IMG/VR virus record: IMGVR_UViG_3300030106_004815
Coordinates: 1 to 52,291 of that record
DNA from: a virus
Length of the DNA: 52,291 nt
Reading direction: 5' to 3' (one strand)
Part shown: positions 20,195 through 44,396 of the stretch, piece by piece
Layout: every line of letters starts with the position of its first letter
Position numbering within the stretch: the stretch's first letter is position 1
Made by a program: the position numbers and the translations under genes
The notes under the pieces: model-generated
What the model was told of the DNA's origin: nothing
Database searches by the model: none
What the model saw: the letters and a program-made list of their open reading frames with translations, nothing else

Positions 20195-21037
20195 TTAGTC
20201 TACCTTTATCAACTCATCAGCAAAACAACCTCGATATTGATGTTCGCCAACATGATTAATTCGGTCGGTTATTAAGGCATAACATTTACCACCTATATTT
20301 CTCCATCTTCTGCAGAACGCAAAATCTTCTCCCAAATAGGTTTTCGTAGACTGATCAAATTCAGTATCAAATAAATTATAAAAGAAAGGTCTGTTAATCA
20401 GCTCACCATTTACGACAGTTTTCTGAACTATTTCTTTTTCAGGATAAGCCTTGATCATTTTTTCTATAACTTCTCTCTTAATTAACATACACCCAGTAGG
20501 AGAGTGTGTTACTTCAATAACTCCATCTTTATCTATTTCAATATTTTTTTCATTTACTACTTTCATAGGGTATGTGTAGAGTCCTTTATATTTTAAATCT
20601 TTTGCATTTTTTATAGAACCGTTTTGTAATCTATCCCAACATTTATCCCACATAAGCTGTTTGAGTGGGTAAGGCACAGATATAACACCTTTATCTGCAG
20701 CGATCATTTTAAACACAGACTGTGCTTGAAATTCTATATCTGAATCCACGAATAATAAATGTGTGTCTTTACTTTCCATAAAACTAGATACACATAAATT
20801 TCTACCTTGTGTAACTAGAGAAGACTTCATAATTTGAAAAGAAGTTAATACGTCATTCTTCATACAAACCTTTTGAAACTCTAAACAAGCTTGAAAATAA
20901 TGTAGTGATACATCACTATGACATGGTGTGGCTACAAAGATAGAAAACTTTTTTGCTTTAAGGTCATGAATTTTTATATCTTTATCTTTTTCTTTATCTT
21001 TCTTATCAAACCACATTGGTTTATTTGGGTCTTGCAT
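20195..21037 (-). CDS. GT-A fold glycosyltransferase (family 2-like)
   Basis: A 280-residue protein. After a Lys/Asp-rich N-terminal tail comes a Rossmann-like start (FSIFVATPCHSD), a DSD metal and nucleotide-sugar motif (98-100, in LLFVDSDIEF) and an acceptor-side motif (LGEDFAFCRRW) about 145 residues later. These are hallmarks of GT-A enzymes. It overlaps the GT-B glycosyltransferase gene by 17 nt. The likely targets are phage structural proteins, host surface polysaccharide or DNA; none can be chosen from sequence. Confidence 0.8.
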   Translation of the reverse strand: MQDPNKPMWFDKKDKEKDKDIKIHDLKAKKFSIFVATPCHSDVSLHYFQACLEFQKVCMKNDVLTSFQIMKSSLVTQGRNLCVSSFMESKDTHLLFVDSDIEFQAQSVFKMIAADKGVISVPYPLKQLMWDKCWDRLQNGSIKNAKDLKYKGLYTYPMKVVNEKNIEIDKDGVIEVTHSPTGCMLIKREVIEKMIKAYPEKEIVQKTVVNGELINRPFFYNLFDTEFDQSTKTYLGEDFAFCRRWRNIGGKCYALITDRINHVGEHQYRGCFADELIKVD

Positions 21038-21953
21038 TTAAAGCTCCTCTCAAAAACTGTTCCCAATGTCCCGCTATATTCTTCCAGTTATAAAAATGAT
21101 TAAAAAAATTAGATTGATAGTTAAGATGATTATGGCATCCTTTTGAATTTATTTGATTAGGTATCCCATCAATAATGGCTGCAAATTGATGAGCTAAATT
21201 TTTAAAATTAGTATCGTATGGCACATACACAGGAAACTCTGAACAAGTTTCGTAAAGTGCTCCGTTGTCCGTTGTTACTACAAACAAACCACAAGCTAAT
21301 GCTTCAAGTGCAGAGATACAAAAAGTTTCTTCCCAAATATTTGGATACACAAAAGCATCATAAGTATGTAAGTTTTCAAGTATATATTCATTAGATTTAT
21401 ACCCAATGTAATTTACATTAGGTAATTTTTTTGCTTGGTCATATAACGCTTGATATCCTTGGTCATTTTCTTTTTTAAAATCATCACCGTATATCTGTGT
21501 ACTGCTGTAAACATCTAGTTCTATATTCTTATTATCTATAAGTTGCATGGCACCTAGTAAAATAGATAAGCCTCTCCAAGGAGTTGGATGATATATCAAT
21601 TTAATTTTATCTCTTTTAGGTGCTGGATCTCTTTTTTTAAAATCAAGTATTCCATTTTTAATTACGGTGCATCTTTCTAATGGTATATTGAACTGCTTAC
21701 GAAATTGTTCATAGTTCCAATGACTATTGAACACAAAGTAATCGTATTGTTTTATTTGCTCTGGGTCTTTAAAAAATTCTTGAAAGTGTGGTTGATCGGG
21801 TGCCATCTTTTGCCAAAGTATATTTATCTTATTGGCTGCTATGGGAACTTTGCCTGGTACTGACGTGCATATTTGAAAGTGGTCTAATAATTCTGAAGCT
21901 ACATGCTTCTTTAAAAATTCATGTTGTAATTCTGTTCCGCCTGCTGGTTTCAT
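21021..21953 (-). CDS. GT-B fold glycosyltransferase (family 1/4-like)
   Basis: A 310-residue protein with the C-terminal sugar-nucleotide site of family 1/4 enzymes: an E-x7-E arrangement in EETFCISALEALACG, preceded by a YHPTPWRGLSILL start of the donor-binding domain. The N-terminal domain begins with MKPAGGTELQHEFL, where the Gly-Gly may contact the nucleotide. It lies between the GT-A gene (17-nt overlap) and an oxygenase gene (ATGA junction), so all three are probably co-translated. Confidence 0.85.
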   Translation of the reverse strand: MKPAGGTELQHEFLKKHVASELLDHFQICTSVPGKVPIAANKINILWQKMAPDQPHFQEFFKDPEQIKQYDYFVFNSHWNYEQFRKQFNIPLERCTVIKNGILDFKKRDPAPKRDKIKLIYHPTPWRGLSILLGAMQLIDNKNIELDVYSSTQIYGDDFKKENDQGYQALYDQAKKLPNVNYIGYKSNEYILENLHTYDAFVYPNIWEETFCISALEALACGLFVVTTDNGALYETCSEFPVYVPYDTNFKNLAHQFAAIIDGIPNQINSKGCHNHLNYQSNFFNHFYNWKNIAGHWEQFLRGALNARPK

Positions 21954-22540
21954 ATTTTTTCTATAATTAAATTAGAAGCTACTGATACCCTATTACCAGA
22001 ACTTTTAAAAGGATAAACTGCGTGTTCTAGCCAAGATGGAAATATAAATAGATGGCCAACAAAAGGTAAAAAAACTCTACCGTTACTACTATGTGGTAAT
22101 TTTTCTCCATAAAAAAAATTTATTGATCCAGGTGGTGTTGTTGAGCCTGTACCCTTAAGGTCCTCGTTTGCTTCTTTTACCAAATCCCCAGGTACTTCTA
22201 AAAACATCACTGTAGAAAAATCACAATCTTCGTGTATATGTACTGGATTAAAATCTCCCGCTTTCATATAATTTACCCAAGAGCTTACAACCTTAATATT
22301 ACCTATATTGGCTTTGAAGTAATTATTATAATTTTCACGGAAGAAATTAAATTGGGGTTCTAAAATAGCTTGATACTTTTCCCTATCAATACGGTATTCT
22401 GATTTGAAATCACCAACTAGGTTTTCAGCAAACGAATTGTTTTCGTCTTGATTGCAAAGAGACTTAATTTTATTTACACTATCTTGTTCAACCTGACATC
22501 TAAACAGGATAGGACCAAAAATTATGTTTTCTGCCTTCAT
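21950..22540 (-). CDS. 2-oxoglutarate/Fe(II) oxygenase-like protein (HxH type)
   Basis: A 196-residue protein of the putative 2OG-Fe(II) oxygenase family PF13759 type. His101 and His103 (NPVHIHED) precede a STVMFLEVPGD strand; the distal His173 lies in FPSWLEHAVYP and Arg184 in NRVSVASN. These match the metal and 2-oxoglutarate positions of the fold. The substrate is unknown. It overlaps a 58-residue gene upstream and a glycosyltransferase downstream, each by four bases, which suggests one modification module. Confidence 0.8.
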   Translation of the reverse strand: MKAENIIFGPILFRCQVEQDSVNKIKSLCNQDENNSFAENLVGDFKSEYRIDREKYQAILEPQFNFFRENYNNYFKANIGNIKVVSSWVNYMKAGDFNPVHIHEDCDFSTVMFLEVPGDLVKEANEDLKGTGSTTPPGSINFFYGEKLPHSSNGRVFLPFVGHLFIFPSWLEHAVYPFKSSGNRVSVASNLIIEKI

Positions 22541-22713
22541 GACTTAGTTTTACTAAATATGGGTAAATCTGGAACAAGAACTTCTACATCAGTAGCAAGA
22601 TCTTCTTTAGGATGATTTTCTAAAAAAGCTGCTTCTGTTTCATATCTTTCATTAGTTTTAATACTTCTGTAGATTGTTTTTGTTTCACATTTAATTTTAT
22701 TTTGTATAGACAT
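22537..22713 (-). CDS. hypothetical small protein
   Basis: A 58-residue frame from ATG 22713, starting MSIQNKIKCETKTIYRS and containing an acidic C-terminal half (FLENHPKEDLATDVEVLV). It ends with an ATGA overlap into the 2OG oxygenase gene, which supports translation. There is no clear ribosome-binding site and no recognised domain. It is likely co-expressed with the oxygenase. Confidence 0.6.
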   Translation of the reverse strand: MSIQNKIKCETKTIYRSIKTNERYETEAAFLENHPKEDLATDVEVLVPDLPIFSKTKS

Positions 22714-22731
22714 ACATTTTTTTACAATAAT

Positions 22732-22866
22732 TTATCGTCCCTGTCCACGACTGCGTTTTCTCCTTGGTACTCTTTTTGACCAACTTTTATTATGCCTACC
22801 AGGCCTTTTTTTGGGAGTTCTTTTAGTATAATTACTTACACCAAATAACGGTTTTCTTTTACCCAT
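22732..22866 (-). CDS. very basic 44-residue protein
   Basis: A 44-residue protein starting MGKRKPLFGVSNYTKRTPKK, with about 40% Lys and Arg, and ending RGQGR. I recognise the KRTPKKRPG pattern from small proteins of many marine phages, but the function is unknown. It overlaps the 2OG oxygenase gene at 22859 by eight bases. Such charge suits nucleic-acid or virion binding. Confidence 0.7.
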   Translation of the reverse strand: MGKRKPLFGVSNYTKRTPKKRPGRHNKSWSKRVPRRKRSRGQGR

Positions 22867-23434
22867 CTACTAACTCTACTTGTACATTAAATGAGGCAGA
22901 GATTCTTTCTTCATCACTTTGATTAGGTTGTACTTCATGAGGCATATATGCTGGAAATAAAATAAATGTCCCTGCTTCTGGTTTAACTGAAACCTCAGAC
23001 TGAAATTCTGGATCCTCTAACTTATCAAAACCTTGCATAACAGAAGCTATATTAGGATTAGAAAATATAATGTCCCCACAATTTTTTGGTGCTTTAACAT
23101 AATAGACAGCAGAAAGGTGACCTCCTGGATGAATGTGCGTTCGATTAAATGATCCCTTATTGTTTCTGTTAATCCAAAAGTTTGTAATGTGAAATTTTGT
23201 GCTATGTCCTCTAAATAAATTTGTTAAACATTGATCCATAATAACTTTAATAAAAGTAAATATTTCTTCACACATTACGTCTTTAGTTTGAATTCCAAAA
23301 ACATTAGAGGCTTTGTTTAGGTAGTTTTTATCTTCTGCCTCTTTAAGTTTGGATAATAAAAGATTATTGAAGTCGTCATTTATTATCTTTAAATGCTGTA
23401 TAGATTCAGTAAATAAAACTGTTTTTTTAACCAT
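22859..23434 (-). CDS. 2-oxoglutarate/Fe(II) oxygenase-like protein (HxH type)
   Basis: A 191-residue protein of the same PF13759-like type as the gene at 21950. His100 and His102 (NRTHIHPGG) precede LSAVYYVKAP; distal His166 is in PAYMPHEVQP and Arg177 in ERISASFN. This is the best match of the three HxH-type proteins here. It overlaps a basic small protein gene downstream and a structural gene upstream. Substrate unknown. Confidence 0.85.
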   Translation of the reverse strand: MVKKTVLFTESIQHLKIINDDFNNLLLSKLKEAEDKNYLNKASNVFGIQTKDVMCEEIFTFIKVIMDQCLTNLFRGHSTKFHITNFWINRNNKGSFNRTHIHPGGHLSAVYYVKAPKNCGDIIFSNPNIASVMQGFDKLEDPEFQSEVSVKPEAGTFILFPAYMPHEVQPNQSDEERISASFNVQVELVDG

Positions 23435-23768
23435 TTTCCTGAGATCTATCTAATTGTGCGTAGGATATAATGCCTTGTATTTCATTTGCAGTGCCTGCTG
23501 TCATTTTTAAAATATCACCGCCTTCTAGAACTAATGTTTGCGTAATTATATTCGAAACAGTGTTAGCAGCAATAGCTTTCCTTGAAATTGAGTAGGTAGT
23601 TGAAGCAGATGTATCAGTTACTTGCACGGATAAGTTTACTGGGCTTCCACTAGAATTATCAACTTGTACTTGTCTTATTAAAAAAGTTGCACTTGTAGGA
23701 CACGTTAAAACAGAAGCTGTGCCTGTTGTAGTTAGATTTATACCTTGATTTTTATATTGTATGGTCAT
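23427..23768 (-). CDS. structural-type protein
   Basis: A 113-residue protein, Thr/Ser-rich and probably all-beta (TATFLIRQVQVDNSSGSPVN), with no charge clusters. The pattern is like small phage decoration or tail-associated proteins and is common in marine phages. It shares a TAATG junction with the upstream gene and overlaps the following oxygenase gene by eight bases. The assignment to the virion is inference. Confidence 0.6.
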   Translation of the reverse strand: MTIQYKNQGINLTTTGTASVLTCPTSATFLIRQVQVDNSSGSPVNLSVQVTDTSASTTYSISRKAIAANTVSNIITQTLVLEGGDILKMTAGTANEIQGIISYAQLDRSQENG

Positions 23769-23932
23769 TATGATAAAAAATAATTAAATGCATTAGTGTC
23801 ATTTTTTATATCATTCTCATATGAAAAGTTCAACTGAGACTGTAAAGTTCTAAAAGCTTGTAGTATTTGTCTTTGGTCTTCTTGAGAGTATTCTGTTTTA
23901 GGCTCAGGTATTTGTATTGTTATCTTTGCCAT
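23768..23932 (-). CDS. hypothetical small protein
   Basis: A 54-residue protein beginning MAKITIQIPEPKTEYSQEDQ and continuing as a helical segment to an FNYFLS end. It is linked by one-base TAATG junctions to the nozzle-like gene upstream and the structural gene downstream, so translation is almost certainly coupled. Similar short proteins are found at this place in marine phages. Function unknown. Confidence 0.7.
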   Translation of the reverse strand: MAKITIQIPEPKTEYSQEDQRQILQAFRTLQSQLNFSYENDIKNDTNAFNYFLS

Positions 23933-26109
23933 TATCTTCTACCATCTATTCTAACATCAAATCTAAACGTACCATATCTCCAACTCTCGTCTAAGTTTTC
24001 ATTCTCTATTTGAACTGCAGCTAATCTAGCTCTAGCTCTAGTATTAATTTTTGTTGTGGAACTACTTACTGTAAAAGGTCCTAAAGGACTTGAAGCCGCT
24101 GTGGTTCCTTGAGGAAAAGAATTTAAAAATATAGTTACTTTTGCATTACCACTTATTCTTTTGAAGTCAGGTAAAAATCTACTTATACTCATTATATACT
24201 CTCCATCTCCTGGAACACCAGCATTACCATTTAAATCAAACTCACCTGATTTTATAAAACAAGGTATAGCTGTTTCTGTTCCATCACCGTTTGCTTGATT
24301 AACTCCAACCTCGTGTGCATAATAAATTGAAGCTCCGTTTGACACACCATTTACAACTGGGAATGTAGGAGTCTCTGAAGCATTGTAATCAGTAGCATAA
24401 GGTTGTTCGTAAACTGTAGAGCCTACCCACGTTGTTCTATCAAGAGTGCCTGTAGTCCAAACATCCTCGGCAAAATTATAGGTTACTACTTTATCTACAA
24501 CTGATGATGAATTCGTTGGATAAAACCAATTTATTTCAGAATATAATTCATTTATACCACCAAAAACTAATTGCCCTGAATCATAGTTCAAACCAGGATT
24601 ACTACCATCAGTGGTAAAAACAAAATCTTCTACTAAACAAGGTAATGATTTTACTGTTCCATCATAAGCGTAAAAGCCACCTGTTTTACCCATCCAATAT
24701 ACAGCACCATTTGCAAATACTCCTGCGTGTTGCCCAAGTAAACCATTGTTAGATCCTACTTTTCTAATTGAGAAAGTAAAAGGTGGACCTACGAATTGCA
24801 TTTCATAAGCAGCGGTATCTGTTAAGACTAAAATATAATCTTTACCTTTAAAAGCTCCTACAATTTTTGTGCCATCATCTAATCTAAATGTCCCTGCGGT
24901 GTTCGTTGAAGTAGGTTCGTAATCACTTAAACTTTCTTGATCGGAGAATCTAATAAACATTTTGTCTTGTGATGTCGCTGTTCCTATAGTTGTTTCTGTT
25001 CCGAAATGAAATAAATGTCTGTCTCTATCAGATACAAGGGTCATTACAGATTTTGTTGGCATTCCAGAGCCTATGACAGCTCTAGTTTGTAAAGCGTTAC
25101 TTGCCGTTGGATCCCAGGTAAAAGTTTTTCCATTAGAAATTGTTGCTATTAAAATGTTTCCAAAATTATCTAAAGACCAGTTTGCAGGTTCGATACTTAC
25201 TGAACTCGAAGAAGAAGCGTCTCCCCAGCCTATATAATCACTTATGTCAGTAACTGTCGATCCGTCTGAGTGTGCAGCAGGTGTAGTTCCGTTTGCACCT
25301 CTTCCTAAAGTTTGAAGAGTATTACTATTTTTCGATGCGTAAGTAATGTCTTCAGAACCAATTCTAATTGTGCCTGAACTAGGAAAGCTAGAGGCATCTG
25401 TTAAAATTACTTGAGCTGTAGTTCCAGCGGCTAAAGTACCCCCGTTGTTCATCGTAGTGGTTACAGTTGCAACAGTTCTACCACCCCAAAGATAAGTACC
25501 CCAACCATATCCATAGGTTTGATTTAATGGTCCAACTGGTTCATAGGGTCGAACATCTAATGTTCCGTTGTTCGTTGTCCCTGAGCCTGTCTCTGCTGAA
25601 GGCATCGTAATTGTAAAAGTTTTTGTAGTGGGCACGCTTTGAACTTCAAACAATTGATCATCAAAACTTGTAGCTGTAAAACCTGTTTGGCCCGCATTGA
25701 ACGATCCTGCATTTGCAAACGTTGTTATTTCTCCAACTTCTAAATTGTGAGCACCTGTTGTTGTAATCGTAACAGTAGCTGAAGCGTTGGTTGTTGTAAT
25801 GTTAGCGCCCGTTTGGTAGTTATCTGTTTCAAGTGGAGTAATGTCATAAAAAGCACCTTCGTAATAAATTACTAAAACTTTGTCTGTACCTATTGCTGCA
25901 TACCTTTTACCATTAGTATCTGCCCAAACATGTTGTCCTCGTGCAGAGCCTACTAATTTTTTATTTACTAATGCTGACCAACCACCTATCTTTTCAGGTT
26001 CGCCATATCTAAACCTAACATTATCCCCATCTACCCATCTTCCTTCTGCATCAGAAGGTGTAGATTGTTTGTCGAAACCAGGTGCTATTGTTACTTTTGC
26101 TAAAGGCAT
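23932..26109 (-). CDS. nozzle or stabilisation-type tail protein
   Basis: A 725-residue, Thr/Ser/Gly-rich, mainly beta protein. It begins MPLAKVTIAPGFDKQSTPSD, then a WVDGDNVRFRYGEPEKIGGW segment seen in many marine phage structural proteins annotated as tail or stabilisation proteins. Regular strand repeats in the middle suggest a beta-propeller, like P22 gp10 or the T7 nozzle protein gp12. Its role would be the tail nozzle below the adaptor proteins. A TATAAT box five bases before the ATG suggests its own transcript with no leader. Confidence 0.75.
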   Translation of the reverse strand: MPLAKVTIAPGFDKQSTPSDAEGRWVDGDNVRFRYGEPEKIGGWSALVNKKLVGSARGQHVWADTNGKRYAAIGTDKVLVIYYEGAFYDITPLETDNYQTGANITTTNASATVTITTTGAHNLEVGEITTFANAGSFNAGQTGFTATSFDDQLFEVQSVPTTKTFTITMPSAETGSGTTNNGTLDVRPYEPVGPLNQTYGYGWGTYLWGGRTVATVTTTMNNGGTLAAGTTAQVILTDASSFPSSGTIRIGSEDITYASKNSNTLQTLGRGANGTTPAAHSDGSTVTDISDYIGWGDASSSSSVSIEPANWSLDNFGNILIATISNGKTFTWDPTASNALQTRAVIGSGMPTKSVMTLVSDRDRHLFHFGTETTIGTATSQDKMFIRFSDQESLSDYEPTSTNTAGTFRLDDGTKIVGAFKGKDYILVLTDTAAYEMQFVGPPFTFSIRKVGSNNGLLGQHAGVFANGAVYWMGKTGGFYAYDGTVKSLPCLVEDFVFTTDGSNPGLNYDSGQLVFGGINELYSEINWFYPTNSSSVVDKVVTYNFAEDVWTTGTLDRTTWVGSTVYEQPYATDYNASETPTFPVVNGVSNGASIYYAHEVGVNQANGDGTETAIPCFIKSGEFDLNGNAGVPGDGEYIMSISRFLPDFKRISGNAKVTIFLNSFPQGTTAASSPLGPFTVSSSTTKINTRARARLAAVQIENENLDESWRYGTFRFDVRIDGRR

Positions 26110-26114
26110 ATCAG

Positions 26115-26120
26115 ATTATA
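26115..26120 (-). promoter_or_regulatory. -10 box immediately before the nozzle-like gene
   Basis: TATAAT on the minus strand, five bases (CTGAT) before ATG 26109, with no ribosome-binding site at usual distance. No good -35 box was seen 16-18 bases upstream. This matches the spacing at 2197-2208, and both suggest leaderless transcription. Confidence 0.4.
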
Positions 26121-26157
26121 ACACCTTCAGTTTAATAAATAAACAAAGGCAAGCACC

Positions 26158-26673
26158 TTAAAATCTTTGTACTACGTTGAAATTAAAGGCTATTGCGTAC
26201 TTAGGGTCAGTTAATTGTTCATGGGGGGCTTCATGAAATATGAATCCGTTGAATACAACAAACACACCTTCTCTAGGTATAACTTCTACATCAAGCTCAG
26301 GAAATACCAAAGGCTGATTAGAGTTATTTAAATATAACACACCAGCATAATCAAACTTAGCATGGTTATGTGATGTTGTTTGAGCAGATCCTTGCATTTT
26401 GATACCCCAAGAATCTTGCAACGTGAAAGGACCTGATAAGTGTTTTGATAATTTTCCGTAAGCTTTTGCTAATGTTTTTTGAAAGTTTTCATCTTTGTTA
26501 AAAGCTTTCCAATCTGTCATTTGCCCCTTTACGTTTGTAACAAAATCTAAATTTTTTATTTCTAGCATTCTATTAATTTCAGAAATAAAATAATTAGCAT
26601 CTACATCTAATTTAGTTTCAATTAATAAAGCAGGTCTTTTAAGTTCAGTTTTAATTAATTTATCGATTGGCAT
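26158..26673 (-). CDS. 2-oxoglutarate/Fe(II) oxygenase-like protein (HxH type)
   Basis: A 171-residue protein. His102 and His104 (TTSHNHAKFD) precede YAGVLYLNN; distal His147 is in NGFIFHEAPH and a Lys158 takes the place of the usual Arg in DPKYAIAFNF. That change could weaken 2-oxoglutarate binding, so it may be inactive or use another cofactor contact. It overlaps the upstream oxygenase by 14 nt. It is the last of three adjacent oxygenase-like genes (27783 to 26158). Confidence 0.75.
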   Translation of the reverse strand: MPIDKLIKTELKRPALLIETKLDVDANYFISEINRMLEIKNLDFVTNVKGQMTDWKAFNKDENFQKTLAKAYGKLSKHLSGPFTLQDSWGIKMQGSAQTTSHNHAKFDYAGVLYLNNSNQPLVFPELDVEVIPREGVFVVFNGFIFHEAPHEQLTDPKYAIAFNFNVVQRF

Positions 26674-27214
26674 TCGGATTGAAAGGTTTTTTCATACCCC
26701 ATAATGCCCTTCCATCTACAGCTTGAGCTTTTTTATTTGTTTCAGGATCATAATAATGTAGAAAACATTGGGCATGATAATCTCCAGTAAAGGTTTCTCT
26801 CCAATGCGCAGCTTCACATCCTTTATAAACAATACCATCACCTGGCTTTAAATTAATTGGAGTTCCCTCTAGATATATAGGCCACTCTGTACCACACGAG
26901 TCTATCATTAAAGTAACACTATATTCACATTCAGGTCTATCTTTATGCTTTGGTAAAATATCTCCCATAGTATAAGACCGCCAATATGAATAAGTTGGCA
27001 TTACTTTCTTACCTACAATTTCAGCAATCTTCTTCGTTTGTTTAATCATTAAGCCTTCCATGATAGGATGGCCATAATAACCTGTTGTTGTGTGTCCAGG
27101 TTGTGTGTCAAACTCATCACAATTTATTCTATGAGTAATTTTACAATAATTTTTTAAAAGATCTAAAACGTCTTGTGATACAAAATTTTCTATTTTTTTA
27201 TATTTACCTTCCAT
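26660..27214 (-). CDS. 2-oxoglutarate/Fe(II) oxygenase
   Basis: A 184-residue protein from ATG 27214, linked to the upstream gene by a TAATG junction. The HxD metal motif is His90-Asp92 in LPKHKDRPE, and a distal His137 lies in CEAAHWRE after a LKPGDGIVY strand. This is the spacing of a double-stranded beta-helix oxygenase. The longer frame from 27286 is discarded because it runs into the upstream gene. Substrate unknown. Confidence 0.8.
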   Translation of the reverse strand: MEGKYKKIENFVSQDVLDLLKNYCKITHRINCDEFDTQPGHTTTGYYGHPIMEGLMIKQTKKIAEIVGKKVMPTYSYWRSYTMGDILPKHKDRPECEYSVTLMIDSCGTEWPIYLEGTPINLKPGDGIVYKGCEAAHWRETFTGDYHAQCFLHYYDPETNKKAQAVDGRALWGMKKPFNPNANR

Positions 27215-27783
27215 TATTGCCCCCAAGAAACTATGGCATATCTTATCCCTTTTGTCACTGGTTTTACTCCATGTGGAAACATCCAATAACTAGGCCAAAC
27301 AATTAATCTGCCTGGTTTAACATCTACCGTATATTCATTTGTTTTACAGTCAGGATCAAAAAAACTTAATTCACCACCTTCATAATCATTATTTAACATT
27401 AAGATAAAACTGACATTTCTAATAGGAGTTGTACCTGCATCAAAGTGTGGTCTAAAAAAATGACCTGGTTCATATTTTAATATGCTCATTTCATTTATGA
27501 AATTCATGTTAAGCGTACATCCTGTCTCTTGTTTATATCTAAAGAAGAAATTAAAGAAAGTTGTTTTTAAATAATTATGAATAAAAGCCATTGTCATGCT
27601 TTTTTTAACAGGAGCTACTTCATGCAAGAAAACTTTTCTAATGTTTGTATTTTCAACACCTTCGTCATTACCTATCTTACCTTTTTGAAATTCTTCTACA
27701 CTTCTACAATACAAGAGAATTTTATTTACATCCCCTTGACTTATGGCATTATCATAAACTTTCACTAGATCTTTTATTTCCAT
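27214..27783 (-). CDS. prolyl 4-hydroxylase-like 2OG/Fe(II) oxygenase
   Basis: A 189-residue protein with the clearest P4H-type motifs here: HFD (113-115), a FILMLNNDYEGGELSF strand pair, a VKPGRLIVWPS strand, distal His171 (PHGVKPV) and Arg181 in GIRYAIVSW. Family members hydroxylate proline in proteins or oxidise other substrates. The ATG at 27783 has GGAG nine bases upstream, better than a TTG at 27798. It overlaps the DUF6065-like gene by 10 nt. Confidence 0.9.
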   Translation of the reverse strand: MEIKDLVKVYDNAISQGDVNKILLYCRSVEEFQKGKIGNDEGVENTNIRKVFLHEVAPVKKSMTMAFIHNYLKTTFFNFFFRYKQETGCTLNMNFINEMSILKYEPGHFFRPHFDAGTTPIRNVSFILMLNNDYEGGELSFFDPDCKTNEYTVDVKPGRLIVWPSYWMFPHGVKPVTKGIRYAIVSWGQ

Positions 27784-28538
27784 CTCGTTTTTCTCCAAAA
27801 AAATCTTTTATAGGCATATAAAAAACTTGCTTGTATACTATTAATAACACTATATTTTTTCTTTATATCAACAGGACCTATGGAGTGAGACCAAGATTCT
27901 CTTTTAAAAGGTATTACTTGTACAACAGGTGTACCCACTTTAATAATTGTATCTATCTGTTCATATTTATCACCGTTTAAAGTGAAAGGAAAATTAATAT
28001 GATTGTAATAAGTATCAGTGGCTACGATGCCAGATATAATCTCAAATCTATCATCTCTATTATTCAGAGGTGCTGTAAAAAGACAAGAATACCCAGGAGG
28101 CGTAACAATAATCCAAGGGTTTAAAATTTTGTGAAATTCTAAATTTTTATTTTTTGCAACAAGAGGCGATTCTCCTAATTGTTTTGGGCTGTGTAATTGA
28201 GGTCCTTCTGGATAGTTTATTCTTCTACCTAAATCAGGATCAGAGATTGAATACTTTACTTCTCCTTTACCATGAACTTTTTTTCCATCAGGACCGTCCC
28301 ATTCATTTAACATGTTATGTCTTATGTGAGTATCCTGATAGTTTCTAATTAAATATCCTGTTTGTAATGTTTCCAAAAAAGGTATACAGCCTTTGATTGT
28401 CTTATCATCAACACTATGATTTAAAGACTTAAACCATTTTGGAATATTCAACTTAATAGGTTGTGGTAAAATATTTCTTTCTTTATGTGATTGAATGACT
28501 AAACTATCTGCTTTGAATTCAATGTTCTTATAAATCAT
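27774..28538 (-). CDS. DUF6065-like protein
   Basis: A 254-residue protein with conserved-looking blocks: LNIPKWFKSL, TIKGCIPFLE, NPWIIVTPPGYSCLF, HINFPFT and GTPVVQVIPFKRE. I recognise this as the phage protein family annotated DUF6065, function unknown. The beta-rich core could be cupin-like, and its place at the head of the oxygenase run hints at a related enzyme. A 7-bp inverted repeat sits three bases before its ATG and no ribosome-binding site is visible. Confidence 0.75.
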   Translation of the reverse strand: MIYKNIEFKADSLVIQSHKERNILPQPIKLNIPKWFKSLNHSVDDKTIKGCIPFLETLQTGYLIRNYQDTHIRHNMLNEWDGPDGKKVHGKGEVKYSISDPDLGRRINYPEGPQLHSPKQLGESPLVAKNKNLEFHKILNPWIIVTPPGYSCLFTAPLNNRDDRFEIISGIVATDTYYNHINFPFTLNGDKYEQIDTIIKVGTPVVQVIPFKRESWSHSIGPVDIKKKYSVINSIQASFLYAYKRFFWRKTRWK

Positions 28539-28577: not shown

Positions 28578-28997
28578 TTATTTCATTGATATAAGAGGAC
28601 GAATTGGTGTGCCCGCTTCAGCAAGAATTGTATCGATAGGATTACTTGGGTTAGCAGGACATGTGTCTCTGTCTAAAGCTCTAATTAAAGTAAGTGCGTT
28701 ATCAGCATCCGGTTGATTTTCAGGAAAGTTTGTAGCTTGTTCATAAGCTGCAATGAAATTATCAATCTCTTCTTGCCAATTTACTAAAACTCTATTTGTT
28801 TCGACTGCAGGCTGCTGTGTAAAAGTAGTTCCATCAAAACTAAAACTATTACCTTCAACAAGCCAGTCGTAATCAGCATCACTTATTTCCATAGTTGTTG
28901 CTTCGATAGACCAGTTTGGGACGATATCATTTGGATCAACTCCTGGAGGAGCGATTTTAATAACACTATCACCTCTATGAATTATTGTAGCTGCCAT
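28578..28997 (-). CDS. hypothetical tail-associated protein
   Basis: A 139-residue protein (MAATIIHRGDSVIKIAPPG, then a helical WQEEIDNFIAAYEQ segment and a Pro-rich C-terminus). It follows the tail fibre-like gene by four bases. Position and size resemble tail fibre assembly or accessory proteins of marine phages, but there is no certain family match. The downstream gap of 39 nt contains the palindrome at 28541-28560. Confidence 0.55.
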   Translation of the reverse strand: MAATIIHRGDSVIKIAPPGVDPNDIVPNWSIEATTMEISDADYDWLVEGNSFSFDGTTFTQQPAVETNRVLVNWQEEIDNFIAAYEQATNFPENQPDADNALTLIRALDRDTCPANPSNPIDTILAEAGTPIRPLISMK

Positions 28998-29001: not shown

Positions 29002-30345
29002 TTATCCTGCTATATCCTCGTAAATTACAATTCCACCACCAGTATTACTAATAGTGGCAGGTGATTGTTGATTTGATGGTGATCCAGGTCTAGTAGCAGG
29101 GTTTCCTCCTCTGCTTTCCATTCCTAAGAAAGTTCCGCTTGGTCCTCCAGTAACATATGTTCCGTATCCAAAAATAAAACTTCTTTCAGATACTTGGTTA
29201 TTGTAGTTAGGAGTCATATCAATTCCTTGAGTTGAAGGTCCAAAAGTTCCAGAAGCACCTGGGTGATTAGCTGTACCACCGTTTGCAGTGTGTCCGTTAG
29301 GACCGCCCCAATTTGTTGCGCCCCCAGCTCCTGTGCTATTTCCACCATTAGCTCCTGTTGTTCCTACTGTGTAGGGAACGGAATATGGTTGTGTAATTGT
29401 TGTATGGAAAATTCCATAACCACCATGTCCAGCTGTACCACCTGGTGGGCCGTTTGGTGAAGGATTAAAAAATGCTCCTCCGCCACCTCCAACAAGGTGC
29501 ACTTGAATTTTAGTTGCTGCTGGATTGGCTGTGTAAGTTCCAGAAGGATTACTCGTATGTGTTAAAGTTGTAACGTAGATCATGTTATTTCCACCTGCTG
29601 CTCCTGAAGCTGCAGCTGTTAATCTTCCGTCTTCGTCAACAGTTATGTTTGCTGTTGTGTAAGTTCCTGCAGTCACTGCAGTTGATTGTAATTGACTTGG
29701 TCCAACAGAGTTGGCAGCCATTTTATTTAACGTAACATTTGATTGTAATATTTGAACAGTTCCTACAGCGTTAGGAGCCATTTTATTTTGAGTTACATTT
29801 GATTGTAAAATTTGTACAGTCCCAACTGCATTGGGTGCCATTTTATTTTGTGTTACGTTTGATTGTAAAATTTTTGCTGTTGTTACAGCGTCTGAAGCTA
29901 TTTGAGCTGCAGCTACTGTTCCACCTAAAGTATCTAAAGAAACTTCTTTTAAATTTGTGCCGTCTGAATAAGCTGCGTAAATTTTTGCTGCATCTAATGT
30001 AAAGCCTGTTCCTGATGCAGTTTTAATAGTTAAGTTTGCTGGGTTAGTTAAACCTGTTGCATCAAAGATATAAAATTTTTCAATACTGTCAGGTATAGTA
30101 CAAACTGTGCTAGCAGCGATAGATGCTGTAGCAAATTTAATTACCATGTTTCTAGCATTTGAAAGTGCTGCATTTGACATAGCAAGTGCTAATGTTCCAC
30201 CACTTGATAATGTTACTTGTTCAAAACCAGCTATTGCTTGTTGTACTAAGTTTAAGTTTGTATTAGTTTTATCACCCCATGTACCAGCGTTTTCGCCAGT
30301 TGTCATTAACTCCAATTTGAGGTCTGTAGAATAATTTGATGCCAT
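29002..30345 (-). CDS. tail fibre-type protein with glycine-rich tip
   Basis: A 447-residue protein. It begins MASNYSTDLKLELMTTGENA, with a TWGDKTNTNLNLVQQA motif common at the N-terminus of marine phage fibres. A section of three 20-residue repeats (KMAPNAVGTVQILQSNVTQN type, about residues 160-215) probably forms a shaft. From about 255 the protein is glycine-rich, with a VHLVGGGGGA strand and many GG(T/N) turns, as in glycine-rich receptor-binding tips such as T2-type gp38. It should recognise the host surface. Confidence 0.75.
   Translation of the reverse strand: MASNYSTDLKLELMTTGENAGTWGDKTNTNLNLVQQAIAGFEQVTLSSGGTLALAMSNAALSNARNMVIKFATASIAASTVCTIPDSIEKFYIFDATGLTNPANLTIKTASGTGFTLDAAKIYAAYSDGTNLKEVSLDTLGGTVAAAQIASDAVTTAKILQSNVTQNKMAPNAVGTVQILQSNVTQNKMAPNAVGTVQILQSNVTLNKMAANSVGPSQLQSTAVTAGTYTTANITVDEDGRLTAAASGAAGGNNMIYVTTLTHTSNPSGTYTANPAATKIQVHLVGGGGGAFFNPSPNGPPGGTAGHGGYGIFHTTITQPYSVPYTVGTTGANGGNSTGAGGATNWGGPNGHTANGGTANHPGASGTFGPSTQGIDMTPNYNNQVSERSFIFGYGTYVTGGPSGTFLGMESRGGNPATRPGSPSNQQSPATISNTGGGIVIYEDIAG
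29701..29880 (-). repeat. three tandem 60-bp repeats in the fibre gene
   Basis: Three consecutive 60-bp units (29701-29760, 29761-29820, 29821-29880) each encode a 20-residue motif with the core ILQSNVTQNKMAPNAVG. They keep the reading frame, so gain or loss of units would lengthen or shorten the fibre shaft. The units differ at several third positions, so they are not a very recent duplication. Confidence 0.85.
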
Positions 30346-35086: not shown

Positions 35087-35596
35087 CTACACGTAGTTAA
35101 TATTCAATAAATATCTTTTATGTACGTCTGTTTGATATTTAGCTTTGTGTTTTATGTCTCCATCAAATATTAACATTCTATTTTCCTTACTGTCAACTTC
35201 TCTGTGTTTACCATTATCATCTAAAATTGTCTTACCATTATTATTATTCAAATAAAAAATAGCTGTTTTATTATTTGGTATATCTGGATAATCTACATGC
35301 CATTTTGAACTAATAGAATCAACATCCCGCAAGTTTAAATTAGCTCTAATTTGTATAGGGGCTACAATATTTAATTTCGTTAAAAGTAATTCTATTTCTT
35401 TAGAATGTGGTGCTAAAAATTGCCAATGATTAAAAATACAATGATTAAAAAAACCATTCTTACTTAAGTTTTTTTGTTCATCCTCTAATGGAACATCTTG
35501 ATCCATCCAATACCAAGGTATTGTACTTGATAGAAAGTGTTCTTGAATTTTTTTAAAATGTTGATCTTCTAAAAAATTATCAATAACCTTTATCAT
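35087..35596 (-). CDS. 2-oxoglutarate/Fe(II) oxygenase
   Basis: A 169-residue protein with HxD at 100-102 (SKWHVDYPD), an AIFYLNNNNG strand pair, distal His150 (DIKHKAKYQ) and Arg161 in HKRYLLNI. These are the iron and 2-oxoglutarate positions of a 2OG oxygenase. The start at ATG 35596 makes an ATGA junction with the M15 peptidase gene. This sixth oxygenase is separate from the others, and its substrate is unknown. Confidence 0.85.
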   Translation of the reverse strand: MIKVIDNFLEDQHFKKIQEHFLSSTIPWYWMDQDVPLEDEQKNLSKNGFFNHCIFNHWQFLAPHSKEIELLLTKLNIVAPIQIRANLNLRDVDSISSKWHVDYPDIPNNKTAIFYLNNNNGKTILDDNGKHREVDSKENRMLIFDGDIKHKAKYQTDVHKRYLLNINYV

Positions 35597-36063
35597 TCTA
35601 ACCAAGGTGTATAAGAAACTTTACCATCCACTCTTTGTGCTCTTAAAGATTGATTTCGGTTGTTGCCTGACGAATATGAACAATGTATCCAGCCCGAAGT
35701 TGGTTCGTTGTCTCGGTAGAACTCAAGGATCAATTGATCAAATTCTAACTCTGATTTAATCCACGAAGCTAGCTCTCTGTTATCCACGCCAGGTATTTCA
35801 AAGTCTGCTGCAGCCGCTTGGTCATCTGCTACATGTTGAGAATTTACTGAACTTCCAATTTCTAGGCAGAGCTGAGCACAACGGAATCCTGATGATATGA
35901 TTAATGGTTTTTCAAAGTGTGAACGAACTGGTTGTAGTATGTTTACTGCTAACGCTTTTAGATTTTCAATTTGCTGTGGGTTAGGATTATTATTAATACC
36001 CTTCCTTTCAGCTATTTGGCTTTTGGTAAGCTCGTCTAATGTTATGTTTGCTGTTAACTTCAT
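35593..36063 (-). CDS. M15-family peptidase, probable endolysin
   Basis: A 156-residue peptidase. Zinc ligands are visible as His77 (NSQHVADD), Asp87 (AAADFEI) and His127 (GWIHCSY), with the SSGFRC loop before them. The order and size match Peptidase M15A/M15_3 (D-Ala-D-Ala type) enzymes, which phages use to cut peptidoglycan cross-links. GAGGAG precedes the ATG. Its position beside small membrane proteins supports a lysis role. There is no signal peptide, so a holin would release it. Confidence 0.9.
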   Translation of the reverse strand: MKLTANITLDELTKSQIAERKGINNNPNPQQIENLKALAVNILQPVRSHFEKPLIISSGFRCAQLCLEIGSSVNSQHVADDQAAAADFEIPGVDNRELASWIKSELEFDQLILEFYRDNEPTSGWIHCSYSSGNNRNQSLRAQRVDGKVSYTPWLE

Positions 36064-36704
36064 TTTTTCTCCTCTATTTCATAAAAAAATTTATCTGTAT
36101 CTTCTGTTTGCCACTTTCTGGAATCTTCCACATTCCACTCAGAAGTTTGTACTTTCCAATCTGGTACATTATCCTTAACTGTAAAGGATGGAATGTCCCA
36201 AATCAACCTGTTGTTTGGTTGTGCTGCATAATTACCATCATCTAAAGCCAATATATGTGCACATTTATGTTCGTGTGGTATTTCAGAATGGTCTGTATCT
36301 ATAATATTACTTTCGGGGTGTGCAAAATCTACAGTAAAAAGATAAGCACCTGAATGCCACTTTTTATCTTTACCAATATATTTTCCTGCTTGACCGTCTA
36401 GAATATCCCAAGAAGTAACAGCAGGATAGTAACTAAAACAGTTCCATAGAACCAACTCATCAAGCCTACGTTTAGGAACATCATCCGGTTTAAAGCCTCT
36501 TTGAATGAATGCAGATATCGGTAAACGATAGTAGACAGCTCCATTTTCCATAATACAATGAAAAAGTAAGGAACGTCCCGTAATAGACGTAATACCAAAA
36601 ATAATACAGTCTTCAACTTCTCCATGATGTTTTTTAAGATCATATAAATATTCTCTCCTAATTTGTGCATATGTAACTGGTATGTTTGCGTTCAAGTAGC
36701 TCAT
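36060..36704 (-). CDS. conserved marine phage hypothetical protein
   Basis: A 214-residue protein beginning MSYLNANIPVTYAQIRREYL. It contains an LFHCIMENGAVYYRLP strand pair, a HEHKCAHILALDDG core and a C-terminus of DWKVQTSEWNVED and KWQTEDTDKFFYEIE. I recognise this type as recurring in marine phages near lysis genes; function unknown. The His-rich DHSEIPHEHKCAH could bind metal. It shares an ATGA junction with the M15 gene. Confidence 0.65.
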   Translation of the reverse strand: MSYLNANIPVTYAQIRREYLYDLKKHHGEVEDCIIFGITSITGRSLLFHCIMENGAVYYRLPISAFIQRGFKPDDVPKRRLDELVLWNCFSYYPAVTSWDILDGQAGKYIGKDKKWHSGAYLFTVDFAHPESNIIDTDHSEIPHEHKCAHILALDDGNYAAQPNNRLIWDIPSFTVKDNVPDWKVQTSEWNVEDSRKWQTEDTDKFFYEIEEKK

Positions 36705-40087: not shown

Positions 40088-41005
40088 TTAAGCTGTTGGT
40101 AATTTACCATTACCAAAGATAGCTCTTGGATCAGAAAATCCAAATGAGTATCTTTCTCTAGCTTTAAATCTAACGTTTCCAGTATCGAAGTCACCTTCCA
40201 TTGCTGTTTTGATTGGTGATCTAACAAACATTTTCATGCCGTTAGGTACATCAGTCAATAAGAAGAATGAGTCACTGTCAGTTAAAAAGTTATTAACTCT
40301 GTAACCTTGAGGTACCATTCCCATTGAAACAATAGCGTTGATGTCGTTATCTGCTGTTCCTACTCTTTGAGGAGTTTTCATCAATCTGTCAGCTGTAAAT
40401 TGTAATTCTTTTGGAATTATCATTTTTACACCTTGAGCAGCGATTTTTAAACCTCTTTCATCAACGAAAGATTGGATGTCGATTAAAGACTGTTCCAAAG
40501 ATGTTTCGTTAAGGTCAGCAGCAGTGCTTAAAACGTTTGAGAAAACGCCACCAGTAGATAATGGGTGTGAAGCATTGATTAATGATACTCCATCTCCACC
40601 AGTTACTGTTGTTACTTGTGCGTTGTTCAATACGTTTGCAGCTTTCACTTGCTTCGTGTTAGCCATAGATCTTGCTAATGCTCTAGTGTATCTAGCAGCA
40701 AGTCTATCGTAAAGGTTATCTTCGATTGCTTCTTCAGTAATTGCGAAAGCTAATGCGACTGTTTCGTGATTGTATCTAGCAGTGAAAGTTTCATTTGCTT
40801 GATCAAAAACTACGCCAGCACCTTCTTGCTTAACTGGTGCTCCAGCGAATCCAGCCAACATTACTTCTTCTTCAAAAGCTCTGTCAGATGTTTCTGTAGT
40901 ATAAATCTCAGCGTGCTGATTTTCATACCTTTTGTATTCCAGGCCGAATAGTGCATTCAATCCTGGCTCTAGTTCTTTTACTAGTTGCGAACGTGATATT
41001 GCCAT
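40088..41005 (-). CDS. major capsid protein
   Basis: A 305-residue protein. The order of elements suits a phage capsid protein: a helical N-terminus (SRSQLVKELEPGLNALFG), a beta-rich middle (YNHETVALAFAITEEAI), a LARSMANTKQVKAANVL helix and a C-terminus with a SPIKTAMEGDFDTGNVRF strand. The pattern resembles capsid proteins of the Mu gpT-like type, with an HK97 fold. There is no separate N-terminal delta domain, in agreement with a separate scaffold gene at 42137. It is followed by a strong terminator. Confidence 0.85.
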   Translation of the reverse strand: MAISRSQLVKELEPGLNALFGLEYKRYENQHAEIYTTETSDRAFEEEVMLAGFAGAPVKQEGAGVVFDQANETFTARYNHETVALAFAITEEAIEDNLYDRLAARYTRALARSMANTKQVKAANVLNNAQVTTVTGGDGVSLINASHPLSTGGVFSNVLSTAADLNETSLEQSLIDIQSFVDERGLKIAAQGVKMIIPKELQFTADRLMKTPQRVGTADNDINAIVSMGMVPQGYRVNNFLTDSDSFFLLTDVPNGMKMFVRSPIKTAMEGDFDTGNVRFKARERYSFGFSDPRAIFGNGKLPTA

Positions 41006-41017
41006 AATTTTATACTC

Positions 41018-41608
41018 CTATATGCCTGTTCTGCTTCTGTATTGGTGATGATTAATTCTTACCAATATATTAGCGTTGCTCGTTGCGGTATCTGAGTTAT
41101 CAGGGTCCTGACAAATATCAATTGCTTGAAGCACGAATGATACTGTAGTACCTGAGTTACTTACATCTAATTGAGCTTTAGATATACCTGTTTGTGTTAC
41201 ACCTGTTGTGTTCGTAACAGCGTAGTTTCTAAAAAGATCTGCTCTTGTAAAAGCTTCATCAGCGTTTGCCAAGAAGACCGCGTCTGGGTCATCCACTACA
41301 AAAGCTGTTATATCACTTGCAACAACACTACCTGGGTAGTAATTTTTGTAAGTTGGCTTTTGAGTAGTTGGATCTGTATAAAACACACCGTTAAAAACGC
41401 CCACTGCAGCTGTCGATAAACCAGCTGAGTTGTTGGTATTGTTGTATTTCTCAACATTACCAGCTGTAGTCACAATTACCAAGTCGCCTTGGTAAATTGC
41501 ATGTCCCATATTACTAGCTATCGTGTATCTGTTTTGGGCACCAACCAATGGTGTACCGTCTAGTTTTCTGTACGGTCTTAGACCGAACTTCTCTTGTACG
41601 TTTGCCAT
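41018..41608 (-). CDS. capsid-associated structural protein
   Basis: A 196-residue, beta-rich protein (MANVQEKFGLRPYRKLDGTP, IYQGDLVIVTTAGNV) of a type that regularly accompanies capsid genes in marine phages. It may be a decoration or head fibre protein. It lies 12 bases from the capsid gene in the same operon. The 61-nt gap to the next upstream gene has no clear terminator. Confidence 0.7.
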   Translation of the reverse strand: MANVQEKFGLRPYRKLDGTPLVGAQNRYTIASNMGHAIYQGDLVIVTTAGNVEKYNNTNNSAGLSTAAVGVFNGVFYTDPTTQKPTYKNYYPGSVVASDITAFVVDDPDAVFLANADEAFTRADLFRNYAVTNTTGVTQTGISKAQLDVSNSGTTVSFVLQAIDICQDPDNSDTATSNANILVRINHHQYRSRTGI

Positions 41609-41669
41609 AGTTTAGTTTCCTTATATTTTAACGTTTTATCTTAAAGACCCGATAGCAATTGCAAAAAAA

Positions 41670-42137
41670 TTATTTCTTGCGACTACCACCAAAGGTCACT
41701 TTAGACTGCCTCTCAATATTGATTGGCATGTCTGGATGTTGTTCCTTCATGAGATCTTGATCAATCGCGTCAGCTCTATCTTGAGTTATCTTTCTAAAAT
41801 AGGCTTCTCGCGCTTGTAGGATCTCCAAAGGGATTCTCCCCAACACAAGGCCTCCAATTCCGATTAACCCCTGATGTTTACCTTCAGAAATTGTTGGATA
41901 ATCATTTTTGCCTAACTCACTTACGATCGTATCGGCTCTAACAAATTCCCAACCCTCTCTTAGTTTTCTAGATACGTTAGACGTATCTTCGAAACCTTGC
42001 ACTGATGTTCTTATCCATCTATGTGCAAAACCTTTCGGTGCAGGTGGCGCATCCAAACTGGATGATGGAGCCCAATCTAGTTTTCTCTCGGTTTTTTTCC
42101 GAGTATCGGACTCGCGTGAAGTTCTTATCTTTTCCAT
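41670..42137 (-). CDS. conserved structural-region protein
   Basis: A 155-residue protein with a Lys/Arg/Ser-rich N-terminus and a recognisable marine phage core: GFAHRWIRTSVQGFEDTSN, then KLREGWEFVRAD, GIGGLVLGRIPLEILQAREA. It shares a one-base TAATG-type junction with the scaffold gene. It presumably takes part in head assembly. No named family. Confidence 0.7.
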   Translation of the reverse strand: MEKIRTSRESDTRKKTERKLDWAPSSSLDAPPAPKGFAHRWIRTSVQGFEDTSNVSRKLREGWEFVRADTIVSELGKNDYPTISEGKHQGLIGIGGLVLGRIPLEILQAREAYFRKITQDRADAIDQDLMKEQHPDMPINIERQSKVTFGGSRKK

Positions 42138-43147: not shown

Positions 43148-43155
43148 TTTACCTC

Positions 43156-43602: not shown

Positions 43603-43603
43603 T

Positions 43604-43792
43604 TTATTGCTCCTGTTTTTTTAACAAGTCTTTTATGTCTTGTTGCAAGTCATCTAATGACTTGATTTGTCCTCTAATATAGTAAAGGTCGTTAGTGTTG
43701 TCAACATCACGCACTAAAGTTTCTTTCAAACGTTCCTTACGTCTGTGTATCAAAGTTTTTATTACATCATTAGATGCAGTATCAATCGCCAT
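43604..43792 (-). CDS. small coiled-coil protein
   Basis: A 62-residue, helical, charged protein (LIHRRKERLKETLVRDVDN, YIRGQIKSLDDLQQDIKDLL) with heptad pattern. It lies two bases from the GroES-like gene and overlaps the methyltransferase gene by 11 nt. This type recurs next to portal and chaperonin genes in marine phages. It may help head assembly; function unknown. Confidence 0.65.
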   Translation of the reverse strand: MAIDTASNDVIKTLIHRRKERLKETLVRDVDNTNDLYYIRGQIKSLDDLQQDIKDLLKKQEQ

Positions 43793-44360: not shown

Positions 44361-44396
44361 AAGAAGTGTTTAACATTTTATAGACTCAAAGCAAGT

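What the first reader, a model, noticed from the sequence alone, without database searches (positions are those of the whole stretch)
20195..28538. Modification-gene island of two glycosyltransferases and five 2OG/Fe(II) oxygenase-like proteins among virion genes
Two glycosyltransferases (GT-A and GT-B types) are followed by two oxygenase-like proteins; after the nozzle-like gene three more oxygenases and a DUF6065-like protein form a tight run. A sixth oxygenase is at 35087. Three have canonical HxD...H sites (27214, 26660, 35087) and three the HxH type (21950, 22859, 26158). Marine phages often carry such oxygenases, but this density, coupled by 4-base overlaps to a glycosyltransferase, suggests a pathway: hydroxylation of a residue or base, then sugar transfer, as in hydroxylysine or hydroxyproline glycosylation. 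The target (tail fibre, capsid, host envelope or DNA) is inference.
Basis: partly seen in the sequence, partly recalled or inferred. Interest (0 to 1): 0.7.

Follow-up and report, generated by a model that had tools for sequence, protein, structure and literature searches.

The report
Mobile oxygenase cassette beside phage fibre
An ocean virus related to those that kill the abundant bacterium Pelagibacter carries six intact-looking oxygen-using enzymes, and two of them (one long mislabelled as a haem enzyme) travel together between unrelated viruses and usually settle beside the gene for the virus's cell-gripping fibre, which suggests that they chemically modify that fibre.

Summary
The window is a relative of HTVC023P-type Pelagibacter phages. 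It has GT-A and GT-B glycosyltransferases, five 2OG/Fe(II) oxygenases in the island and a sixth at 35087. All six keep the metal triad and five keep the 2OG-binding Arg/Lys. That HTVC023P-type phages carry many such oxygenases was published in 2022.

New here: (1) the 'ferrochelatase' partner (OXD) has a prolyl-hydroxylase-type oxygenase fold and is not a chelatase. (2) OXE and OXD form one unit: 163 of 164 OXD loci have an OXE gene close by on the same strand, the two co-vary (r=0.92) largely independently of the adjoining nozzle gene (r=0.25-0.30), and they are fused in cyanophages. (3) The unit recurs beside fibre genes in unrelated phages, usually near a glycine-rich adhesin. (4) DUF6065 has a dUTPase-like fold without dUTPase catalytic residues. 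(5) The glycosyltransferases follow the phage backbone, so an obligate hydroxylase-then-glycosyltransferase pathway is not supported.

Best reading: a transferable hydroxylase cassette acting on the receptor-binding fibre or adhesin. The target is inferred. HTVC027P-like phages, with an antisense cassette and no Gly-rich gene, limit the adhesin link.

The parts
20195..21037 (-). GT-A type glycosyltransferase (GTA), DxD motif; phrog_1574
   Evidence: present in 28/28 complete nozzle-to-gene-19 intervals
21021..21953 (-). GT-B (GT4-like) glycosyltransferase (GTB)
   Evidence: PF00534 2e-15, phrog_2170; co-varies with nozzle r=0.90
21950..22540 (-). OXA, 2OG-FeII_Oxy_5 oxygenase, H101xH103...H173, R184; 4-base overlap with GTB
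   Evidence: variable insert
22859..23434 (-). OXB, 2OG-FeII_Oxy_5 oxygenase, H100xH102...H166, R177
   Evidence: PF13759 3e-29; TIGR02466; PDB 2rg4 by sequence
23427..23768 (-). h23, small conserved protein between nozzle and GTB
   Evidence: synteny
23932..26109 (-). nozzle-like virion protein (phrog_3287), used as backbone anchor
26158..26673 (-). OXC, divergent 2OG-FeII_Oxy_5 oxygenase, H102xH104...H147, K158 (K/R in family)
26660..27214 (-). OXD, 2OG/Fe(II) oxygenase fold annotated elsewhere as 'ferrochelatase' (phrog_2954); H90xD92...H137, R139, H153 (numbering from ATG at 27214)
   Evidence: AF2 pLDDT 92.6; Foldseek E 6e-8, VIA Z 14.8-16.4, all 2OG-type oxygenases; no Pfam or NCBIfam hit
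27214..27783 (-). OXE, PF13640 prolyl-hydroxylase-type oxygenase, HxD...H...R conserved; ends in 1-base overlap with OXD
27774..28538 (-). DUF6065-like protein (phrog_7084), dUTPase-like beta-clip fold, catalytic Asp not conserved
28578..28997 (-). g28, small protein between fibre and cassette (fibre-assembly role is only a guess)
   Evidence: position; no family hit
29002..30345 (-). tail fibre with Gly-rich C-terminal part (23% Gly in last 180 aa)
   Evidence: PHROG tail-fibre hits
35087..35605 (-). OXF, 2OG oxygenase annotated elsewhere as 'DNA endonuclease V' (phrog_274); H103xD105...H153, R164
   Evidence: PF13640 1.5e-4, NCBIfam FlmC-type 2OG-Fe 1.4e-4; profile match to OXE P 8e-7

Best explanation
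The island is two things side by side. (1) A transferable cassette, OXE + OXD and often the DUF6065 protein, sits between the receptor-binding tail fibre and the nozzle gene, with extra oxygenases (OXA, OXB, OXC, OXF) gained and lost around it. OXE and OXD both have the residues of active 2OG/Fe(II) oxygenases of the prolyl-hydroxylase type and most likely act as a pair. I infer that they hydroxylate side chains on the newly made fibre or adhesin, in most phages a Gly-rich one, and so change its stability or receptor specificity. (2) A vertically inherited GT-B/GT-A pair, a core function of this phage group, probably glycosylates a virion or host-surface acceptor independently of the cassette. 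Shown here: gene content, OXD fold (predicted model), conserved catalytic residues, inheritance as a unit, fibre-side location in unrelated phages. Inferred: enzyme activity, the substrate, the effect on adsorption.
For: Metal residues conserved at 90% or more in each family. OXD fold: Z 14.8-16.4 to P4H, PHD2, P3H1 and 2rg4-type structures. OXE sequence: only PDB match is collagen prolyl 3-hydroxylase 1, E=1.5e-7; NCBIfam PKHD-type hydroxylases. OXD has an OXE-family partner on the same strand within 2.2 kb in 163/164 loci; Mantel r=0.92 (p=0.0005, 2,000 permutations) against 0.25-0.30 with the nozzle. Fused in S-SCSM1 (453 aa) and ACG-2014f (362 aa). Beside fibre or structural genes in HTVC008M, EXVC030M, HTVC033P and S-SCSM1. 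HTVC008M and EXVC030M each have one ORF with 30% or more Gly in over 140 kb, with OXD 1.0-1.2 kb away (random placement p 0.025, 0.030), although other oxygenases are scattered over those genomes. All 22 sense-oriented OXD clusters with enough flank have a Gly-rich ORF (25% or more) within 6 kb. Glycosyltransferases follow the backbone.
Against: In HTVC027P-like phages the cassette lies antisense in the late operon and no Gly-rich adhesin is present, an arrangement typical of host-directed morons. Two loci have a Gly-rich gene without OXD (L043, L068). The Gly-rich statistics depend on the threshold: Fisher p=0.0003 at 25%, 0.04 at 30%, 0.31 at 35%. In cyanophage ACG-2014f the fusion is not beside a fibre gene. 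OXD lacks the usual 2OG-binding Arg, so its activity is less sure. Co-variation of adjacent genes can come from linkage alone. No biochemical or mass-spectrometric data.
Confidence: 0.45

Rival explanations
1. Host-directed moron cluster: the oxygenases act on host metabolites, envelope or host proteins during infection, and the fibre-nozzle interval is simply a permissive insertion hotspot.
For: Antisense orientation of the cassette in HTVC027P-like phages and HTVC008M; oxygenases of other families are scattered over T4-like pelagiphage genomes; the extra oxygenases vary from phage to phage; iron-transport genes are upregulated during HTVC027P infection (PMC12753301).
Against: A hotspot does not explain why OXE-OXD is kept as a pair (163/164) and recurs at fibre loci in phages with different genome plans, while other oxygenases of the same genomes lie elsewhere.
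Confidence: 0.3
2. One pathway: oxygenases hydroxylate a residue and GT-B/GT-A add sugar to that hydroxyl.
For: Proximity; 4-base OXA/GT-B overlap; both sets almost always present in this phage group; a GTA homologue lies among tail-collar genes in cyanophage ACG-2014f.
Against: Different inheritance; OXE-OXD occurs in many phages at loci without the GT pair (HTVC008M, EXVC030M, HTVC033P); an oxygenase directly before GT-B in only 9/28.
Confidence: 0.1
3. DNA, RNA or nucleotide modification (AlkB/TET-like), supported by a dUTPase-fold DUF6065 protein.
For: DUF6065 has a dUTPase-like fold; its halovirus homologue sits beside thymidylate synthase and near DNA polymerase; OXD lists an AlkB-type structure (3tht) among its Foldseek matches.
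Against: Cassette lies among virion genes; no thymidylate synthase (PF00303) in the record; dUTPase catalytic Asp and RSG motif not conserved; structural matches of OXD are mostly protein hydroxylases.
Confidence: 0.1
4. Published reading: OXD is a ferrochelatase that supplies or uses iron/haem together with 2OG oxygenases (PMC9599517, PMC11561400).
For: Database labels only.
Against: High-confidence double-stranded beta-helix model; conserved HxD...H; no ferrochelatase family hit in Pfam or NCBIfam.
Confidence: 0.01

Closest known systems
2OG-Fe(II) oxygenase plus 'ferrochelatase' partner genes of HTVC023P-type pelagiphages (Wittmers et al. 2022, PMC9599517)
   Same: Same phage group and same gene neighbourhood: eight non-orthologous 2OG oxygenases, 'ferrochelatase' always adjacent to a 2OG oxygenase, glycosyltransferases.
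   Different: There OXD was taken as a chelatase; here it is an oxygenase. The cassette unit, its fusion, its recurrence at fibre loci, the DUF6065 fold and the separate inheritance of the glycosyltransferases are added here.
Prolyl hydroxylases (P3H1, bacterial P4H, PHD2, viral vCPH of PBCV-1)
   Same: OXE has a sequence match to P3H1; the OXD model superposes on P4H/PHD2 (Z about 15).
   Different: OXD lacks the usual 2OG-binding Arg after the distal His; substrate unknown; small single-domain phage proteins.
TIGR02466 / PF13759 oxygenases (PDB 2rg4, 3bvc)
   Same: OXB above the family cut-off; OXA and OXC related; HxH...H...R/K.
   Different: 2rg4 and 3bvc are themselves uncharacterised, so they give no function.
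Trimeric dUTPases
   Same: DUF6065 model gives only dUTPases among its top PDB matches (Z 9.3-11.3); profile alignment pairs motif III and IV regions.
   Different: Catalytic Asp not conserved (Ala in the window), RSG motif absent.
gp38 polyglycine-II adhesins of T2/S16/PP01 phages (PMC12892980)
   Same: Gly-rich distal fibre protein that carries receptor-binding loops.
   Different: No oxygenase partner is known there; homology of the pelagiphage Gly-rich proteins to gp38 was not tested.

Membership tests
2OG/Fe(II) oxygenase superfamily | Double-stranded beta-helix fold | tested here: met
   OXD by AF2 and fold search; OXA, OXB, OXE by Pfam over cut-off; OXC and OXF by sub-threshold Pfam plus profile matches
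2OG/Fe(II) oxygenase superfamily | Metal-binding H-x-D/E...H triad | tested here: met
   Conserved in OXD, OXE, OXF; OXA, OXB, OXC have HxH...H, also conserved, as in their PF13759 relative 2rg4
2OG/Fe(II) oxygenase superfamily | 2OG-binding Arg/Lys about 10-11 residues after the distal His | tested here: inconclusive
   Met in OXA, OXB, OXE, OXF (Arg) and OXC (Lys/Arg); not present at that spacing in OXD, which has invariant R139 and H153 and near-invariant R79
2OG/Fe(II) oxygenase superfamily | 2OG-dependent turnover | not testable with these tools
   needs purified protein
Ferrochelatase (PHROG label of OXD) | Sequence family match | tested here: not met
   No Pfam or NCBIfam ferrochelatase hit for OXD or 41 relatives
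Ferrochelatase (PHROG label of OXD) | Alpha/beta two-domain chelatase fold, about 300 aa | tested here: not met
   184-aa beta-helix model, pLDDT 92.6, whose matches are 2OG-type oxygenases
Protein (prolyl) hydroxylase | Fold and active site of P4H/P3H/PHD | tested here: met
   (OXD deviates at the 2OG Arg)
Protein (prolyl) hydroxylase | Hydroxylates protein prolines | not testable with these tools
   substrate unknown
dUTPase (DUF6065 protein) | Trimeric dUTPase-type fold | tested here: met
   Z 9.3-11.3 over about 105-129 residues, only dUTPases in the top 50; Foldseek E only 0.01-0.08; trimer not tested
dUTPase (DUF6065 protein) | Catalytic Asp of motif III and RSG motif II | tested here: not met
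   GIVDTD aligns with GLIDSD, but the first Asp is Ala, His or Gln in several members including the window; no RSG
Hydroxylation-glycosylation pathway | Oxygenase and glycosyltransferase inherited together | tested here: not met
DNA hypermodification system | Thymidylate-synthase-type enzyme making the modified base | tested here: not met
   PF00303 absent from the 60-kb record; other routes not tested

The most novel reading that the evidence does not exclude
Marine phages carry a portable 'adhesin hydroxylase' cassette: two prolyl-hydroxylase-like enzymes, perhaps helped by a dUTPase-fold protein, hydroxylate residues of a Gly-rich, collagen-like or polyglycine-II fibre tip, analogous to collagen maturation, to stabilise it or alter its receptor specificity.
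Probability: 0.3. Interest if true: 0.8.

Novelty: new variant of a known kind. Interest (0 to 1): 0.55.

Why it matters
[quoted passage not shown] If OXD is an oxygenase and the pair acts on the fibre, that reading changes from host metabolism to virion maturation and receptor binding, and it becomes testable in cultured phages: HTVC023P carries OXD and an OXE relative, while HTVC027P on the same host lacks OXD. Enzymatic hydroxylation of a phage adhesin would be a new kind of virion modification as far as the searched literature shows.

Tried and rejected
Ferrochelatase reading of OXD: rejected. 'DNA endonuclease V' label of OXF: rejected, oxygenase residues and PF13640/FlmC matches only. 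One hydroxylase-GT pathway: weakened by separate inheritance. Profile search of PDB sequences with OXD and DUF6065 alignments gave nothing useful. Co-variation of the cassette with the fibre protein itself was weak (r=0.26-0.38), so it adds no support. A Gly-rich threshold of 35% removes the statistical association in the nozzle-anchored set. A first de-replicated count was discarded because many loci were cut before the fibre side; one search replaces it, on a smaller set. Papers on DUF6065: none. The attempt to fetch dUTPases by taxonomic order failed; phage dUTPases were used instead.
Full report
What the window is. It is 52 kb of a 60,015-base virus record whose portal is 61% identical to Pelagibacter phage HTVC023P, 53% to HTVC027P and 54% to 023Pt_psg01, with matching gene order over the late region. 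All genes of the finding lie on the minus strand.

Observation. The two glycosyltransferases, five oxygenases in the island, the DUF6065-like protein and the sixth oxygenase at 35087 are real and at the stated coordinates. Names used here: GTA 20195, GTB 21021, OXA 21950, OXB 22859, OXC 26158, OXD 26660, OXE 27214, OXF 35087. The HxD and HxH assignments are right, and the metal-binding residues are conserved at 90% or more in each family; the residue that normally binds the 2OG carboxylate (Arg, or Lys/Arg in OXC) is present in five of six. OXD is the exception. Its likely start is the ATG at 27214, so the run OXE-OXD-OXC has 1- and 14-base overlaps.

OXD is not a ferrochelatase. PHROG labels OXD 'ferrochelatase' (phrog_2954), a label that has passed into phage records and papers (PMC9599517; PMC11561400). 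No Pfam or NCBIfam ferrochelatase model matches it or its relatives. An AlphaFold2 model from 40 sequences has pLDDT 92.6. The listed Foldseek matches and the top 50 VIA matches are 2OG-type oxygenases and their relatives: P4H (4j25), PHD2, 2rg4, P3H1 (8k0m), Z 14.8-16.4. H90, D92 and H137 are conserved as the triad expects. OXF carries another doubtful label, 'DNA endonuclease V' (phrog_274): it matches PF13640 and FlmC-type oxygenase models and keeps HxD...H...R.

Two inheritance units. In 80 IMG/VR loci around the nozzle gene, 38 span fibre to nozzle: 37 have at least one oxygenase there, 31 have OXD and 29 have OXE and OXD adjacent. In 28 that span nozzle to the gene-19 block, all 28 have GTB and GTA. 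Pairwise protein distances show that OXE, OXD and DUF6065 vary together (r=0.72, 0.77, 0.62) but hardly with the nozzle (0.22, 0.15, 0.16), though OXD is often next to it, while GTB and GTA follow the nozzle (0.90, 0.81). In a larger set of 194 pairs from several phage groups, OXD-OXE r=0.92 (Mantel p=0.0005, 2,000 permutations), against 0.25-0.30 with the nozzle; DUF6065 correlates 0.76-0.90 with the cassette and 0.50 with the nozzle. OXD has an OXE-family gene on the same strand within 2.2 kb in 163 of 164 loci, and the two are one polypeptide in cyanophages S-SCSM1 and ACG-2014f. Linkage alone can make neighbours co-vary, but the sharp boundary at the nozzle and the fusion argue for a functional pair. 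Many loci are close relatives, so the counts overstate the number of independent events.

Fibre-side location. The cassette recurs next to fibre or other tail genes in T4-like pelagiphages HTVC008M and EXVC030M, in HTVC033P, and in cyanophage S-SCSM1. Gly-rich proteins lie close by: HTVC008M and EXVC030M each have a single ORF of 130 aa or more with 30% or more Gly per 100 aa in over 140 kb, and OXD is 1.0 and 1.2 kb from it (random placement 0.025 and 0.030; HTVC033P 0.16, HTVC023P 0.24, psg01 0.26). HTVC008M and EXVC030M are related, so these two are not fully independent. Other oxygenase families are scattered through the same two genomes, so this is not a property of oxygenases at large. 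OXD loci found with the HTVC033P protein: 50 of 50 with enough upstream flank have such a protein within 6 kb; with the HTVC008M protein: 26 of 31. After clustering at 80% OXD identity and requiring flank on the fibre side, 22 of 24 clusters (all 22 in sense orientation) have a Gly-rich ORF at the 25% threshold. Limits: in HTVC027P-like phages the cassette is antisense and no Gly-rich gene is present; two Gly-rich loci lack OXD; and in the nozzle-anchored set the association falls from p=0.0003 at 25% to 0.31 at 35%. In the window itself the fibre has 23% Gly in its last 180 residues, a modest case.

DUF6065. The model (pLDDT 81) matches only dUTPases in the VIA top 50 (Z 9.3-11.3; Foldseek E 0.01-0.08). 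A profile alignment pairs GIVDTD with dUTPase motif III and KGTPYVQVI with motif IV (P 7e-4). The motif III Asp is not conserved (Ala in the window) and RSG is absent, so it is unlikely to be an active dUTPase. In haloarchaeal tailed viruses the homologue lies beside thymidylate synthase. Its role here is unknown.

Mechanism. The best-supported reading is a hydroxylase pair carried with the fibre locus and acting on fibre or adhesin proteins. OXE's only PDB sequence match is collagen prolyl 3-hydroxylase 1, and the best-characterised phage Gly-rich adhesins are polyglycine-II lattices with receptor loops (PMC12892980). Activity, substrate and effect are inferred. The main rival is host-directed action from a cargo hotspot. 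The glycosyltransferases look like a separate core function; a GTA homologue lies among tail-collar genes in cyanophage ACG-2014f, compatible with virion glycosylation.

Known versus new. Wittmers et al. 2022 (PMC9599517) already reported eight non-orthologous 2OG oxygenases, the adjacent 'ferrochelatases' and glycosyltransferases in this phage group. New here are the reassignment of OXD (and OXF), the cassette unit with its fusion, the recurrence at fibre loci, the separate inheritance of the glycosyltransferases and the DUF6065 fold. Literature was searched only in the open library available.

Noticed in passing
26660-27214 and homologues in 156 phage records: PHROG label 'ferrochelatase' (phrog_2954, phrog_3531) appears wrong: the protein has a 2OG oxygenase fold. 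Published seasonal-enrichment claims rest on this label.
   Followed up: yes
35087-35605; also HTVC008M and EXVC030M genes: PHROG label 'DNA endonuclease V' (phrog_274, also 'DNA endonuclease' phrog_2297) is attached to 2OG oxygenases.
   Followed up: partly
27774-28538: DUF6065 has a dUTPase-like fold; homologues occur in haloarchaeal tailed viruses next to thymidylate synthase (HSTV-2 gp40).
   Followed up: partly
36060-36704: PHROG calls this 'ferredoxin' while the HTVC023P record calls its 61% identical homologue PurM; no Pfam hit, so both labels are doubtful.
   Followed up: no
22541-22858: The gap between OXB and OXA holds two short open frames on the minus strand, one a very basic peptide (RTPKKRPGRHNKSW...), below the 60-aa listing limit.
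   Followed up: no
L072, L056, L048 (IMG/VR relatives): Fibre-nozzle intervals with up to seven oxygenase genes in a row.
   Followed up: partly
L247, L249: Another podovirus group has the cassette in the order OXE-OXD-DUF6065 directly after a Gly-rich fibre, showing that DUF6065 moves within the unit.
   Followed up: no
MT647606 (EXVC030M) 40320-44735: OXE-OXD-OXF and other oxygenases lie beside genes annotated as heme oxygenase and phycocyanobilin:ferredoxin oxidoreductase.
   Followed up: no
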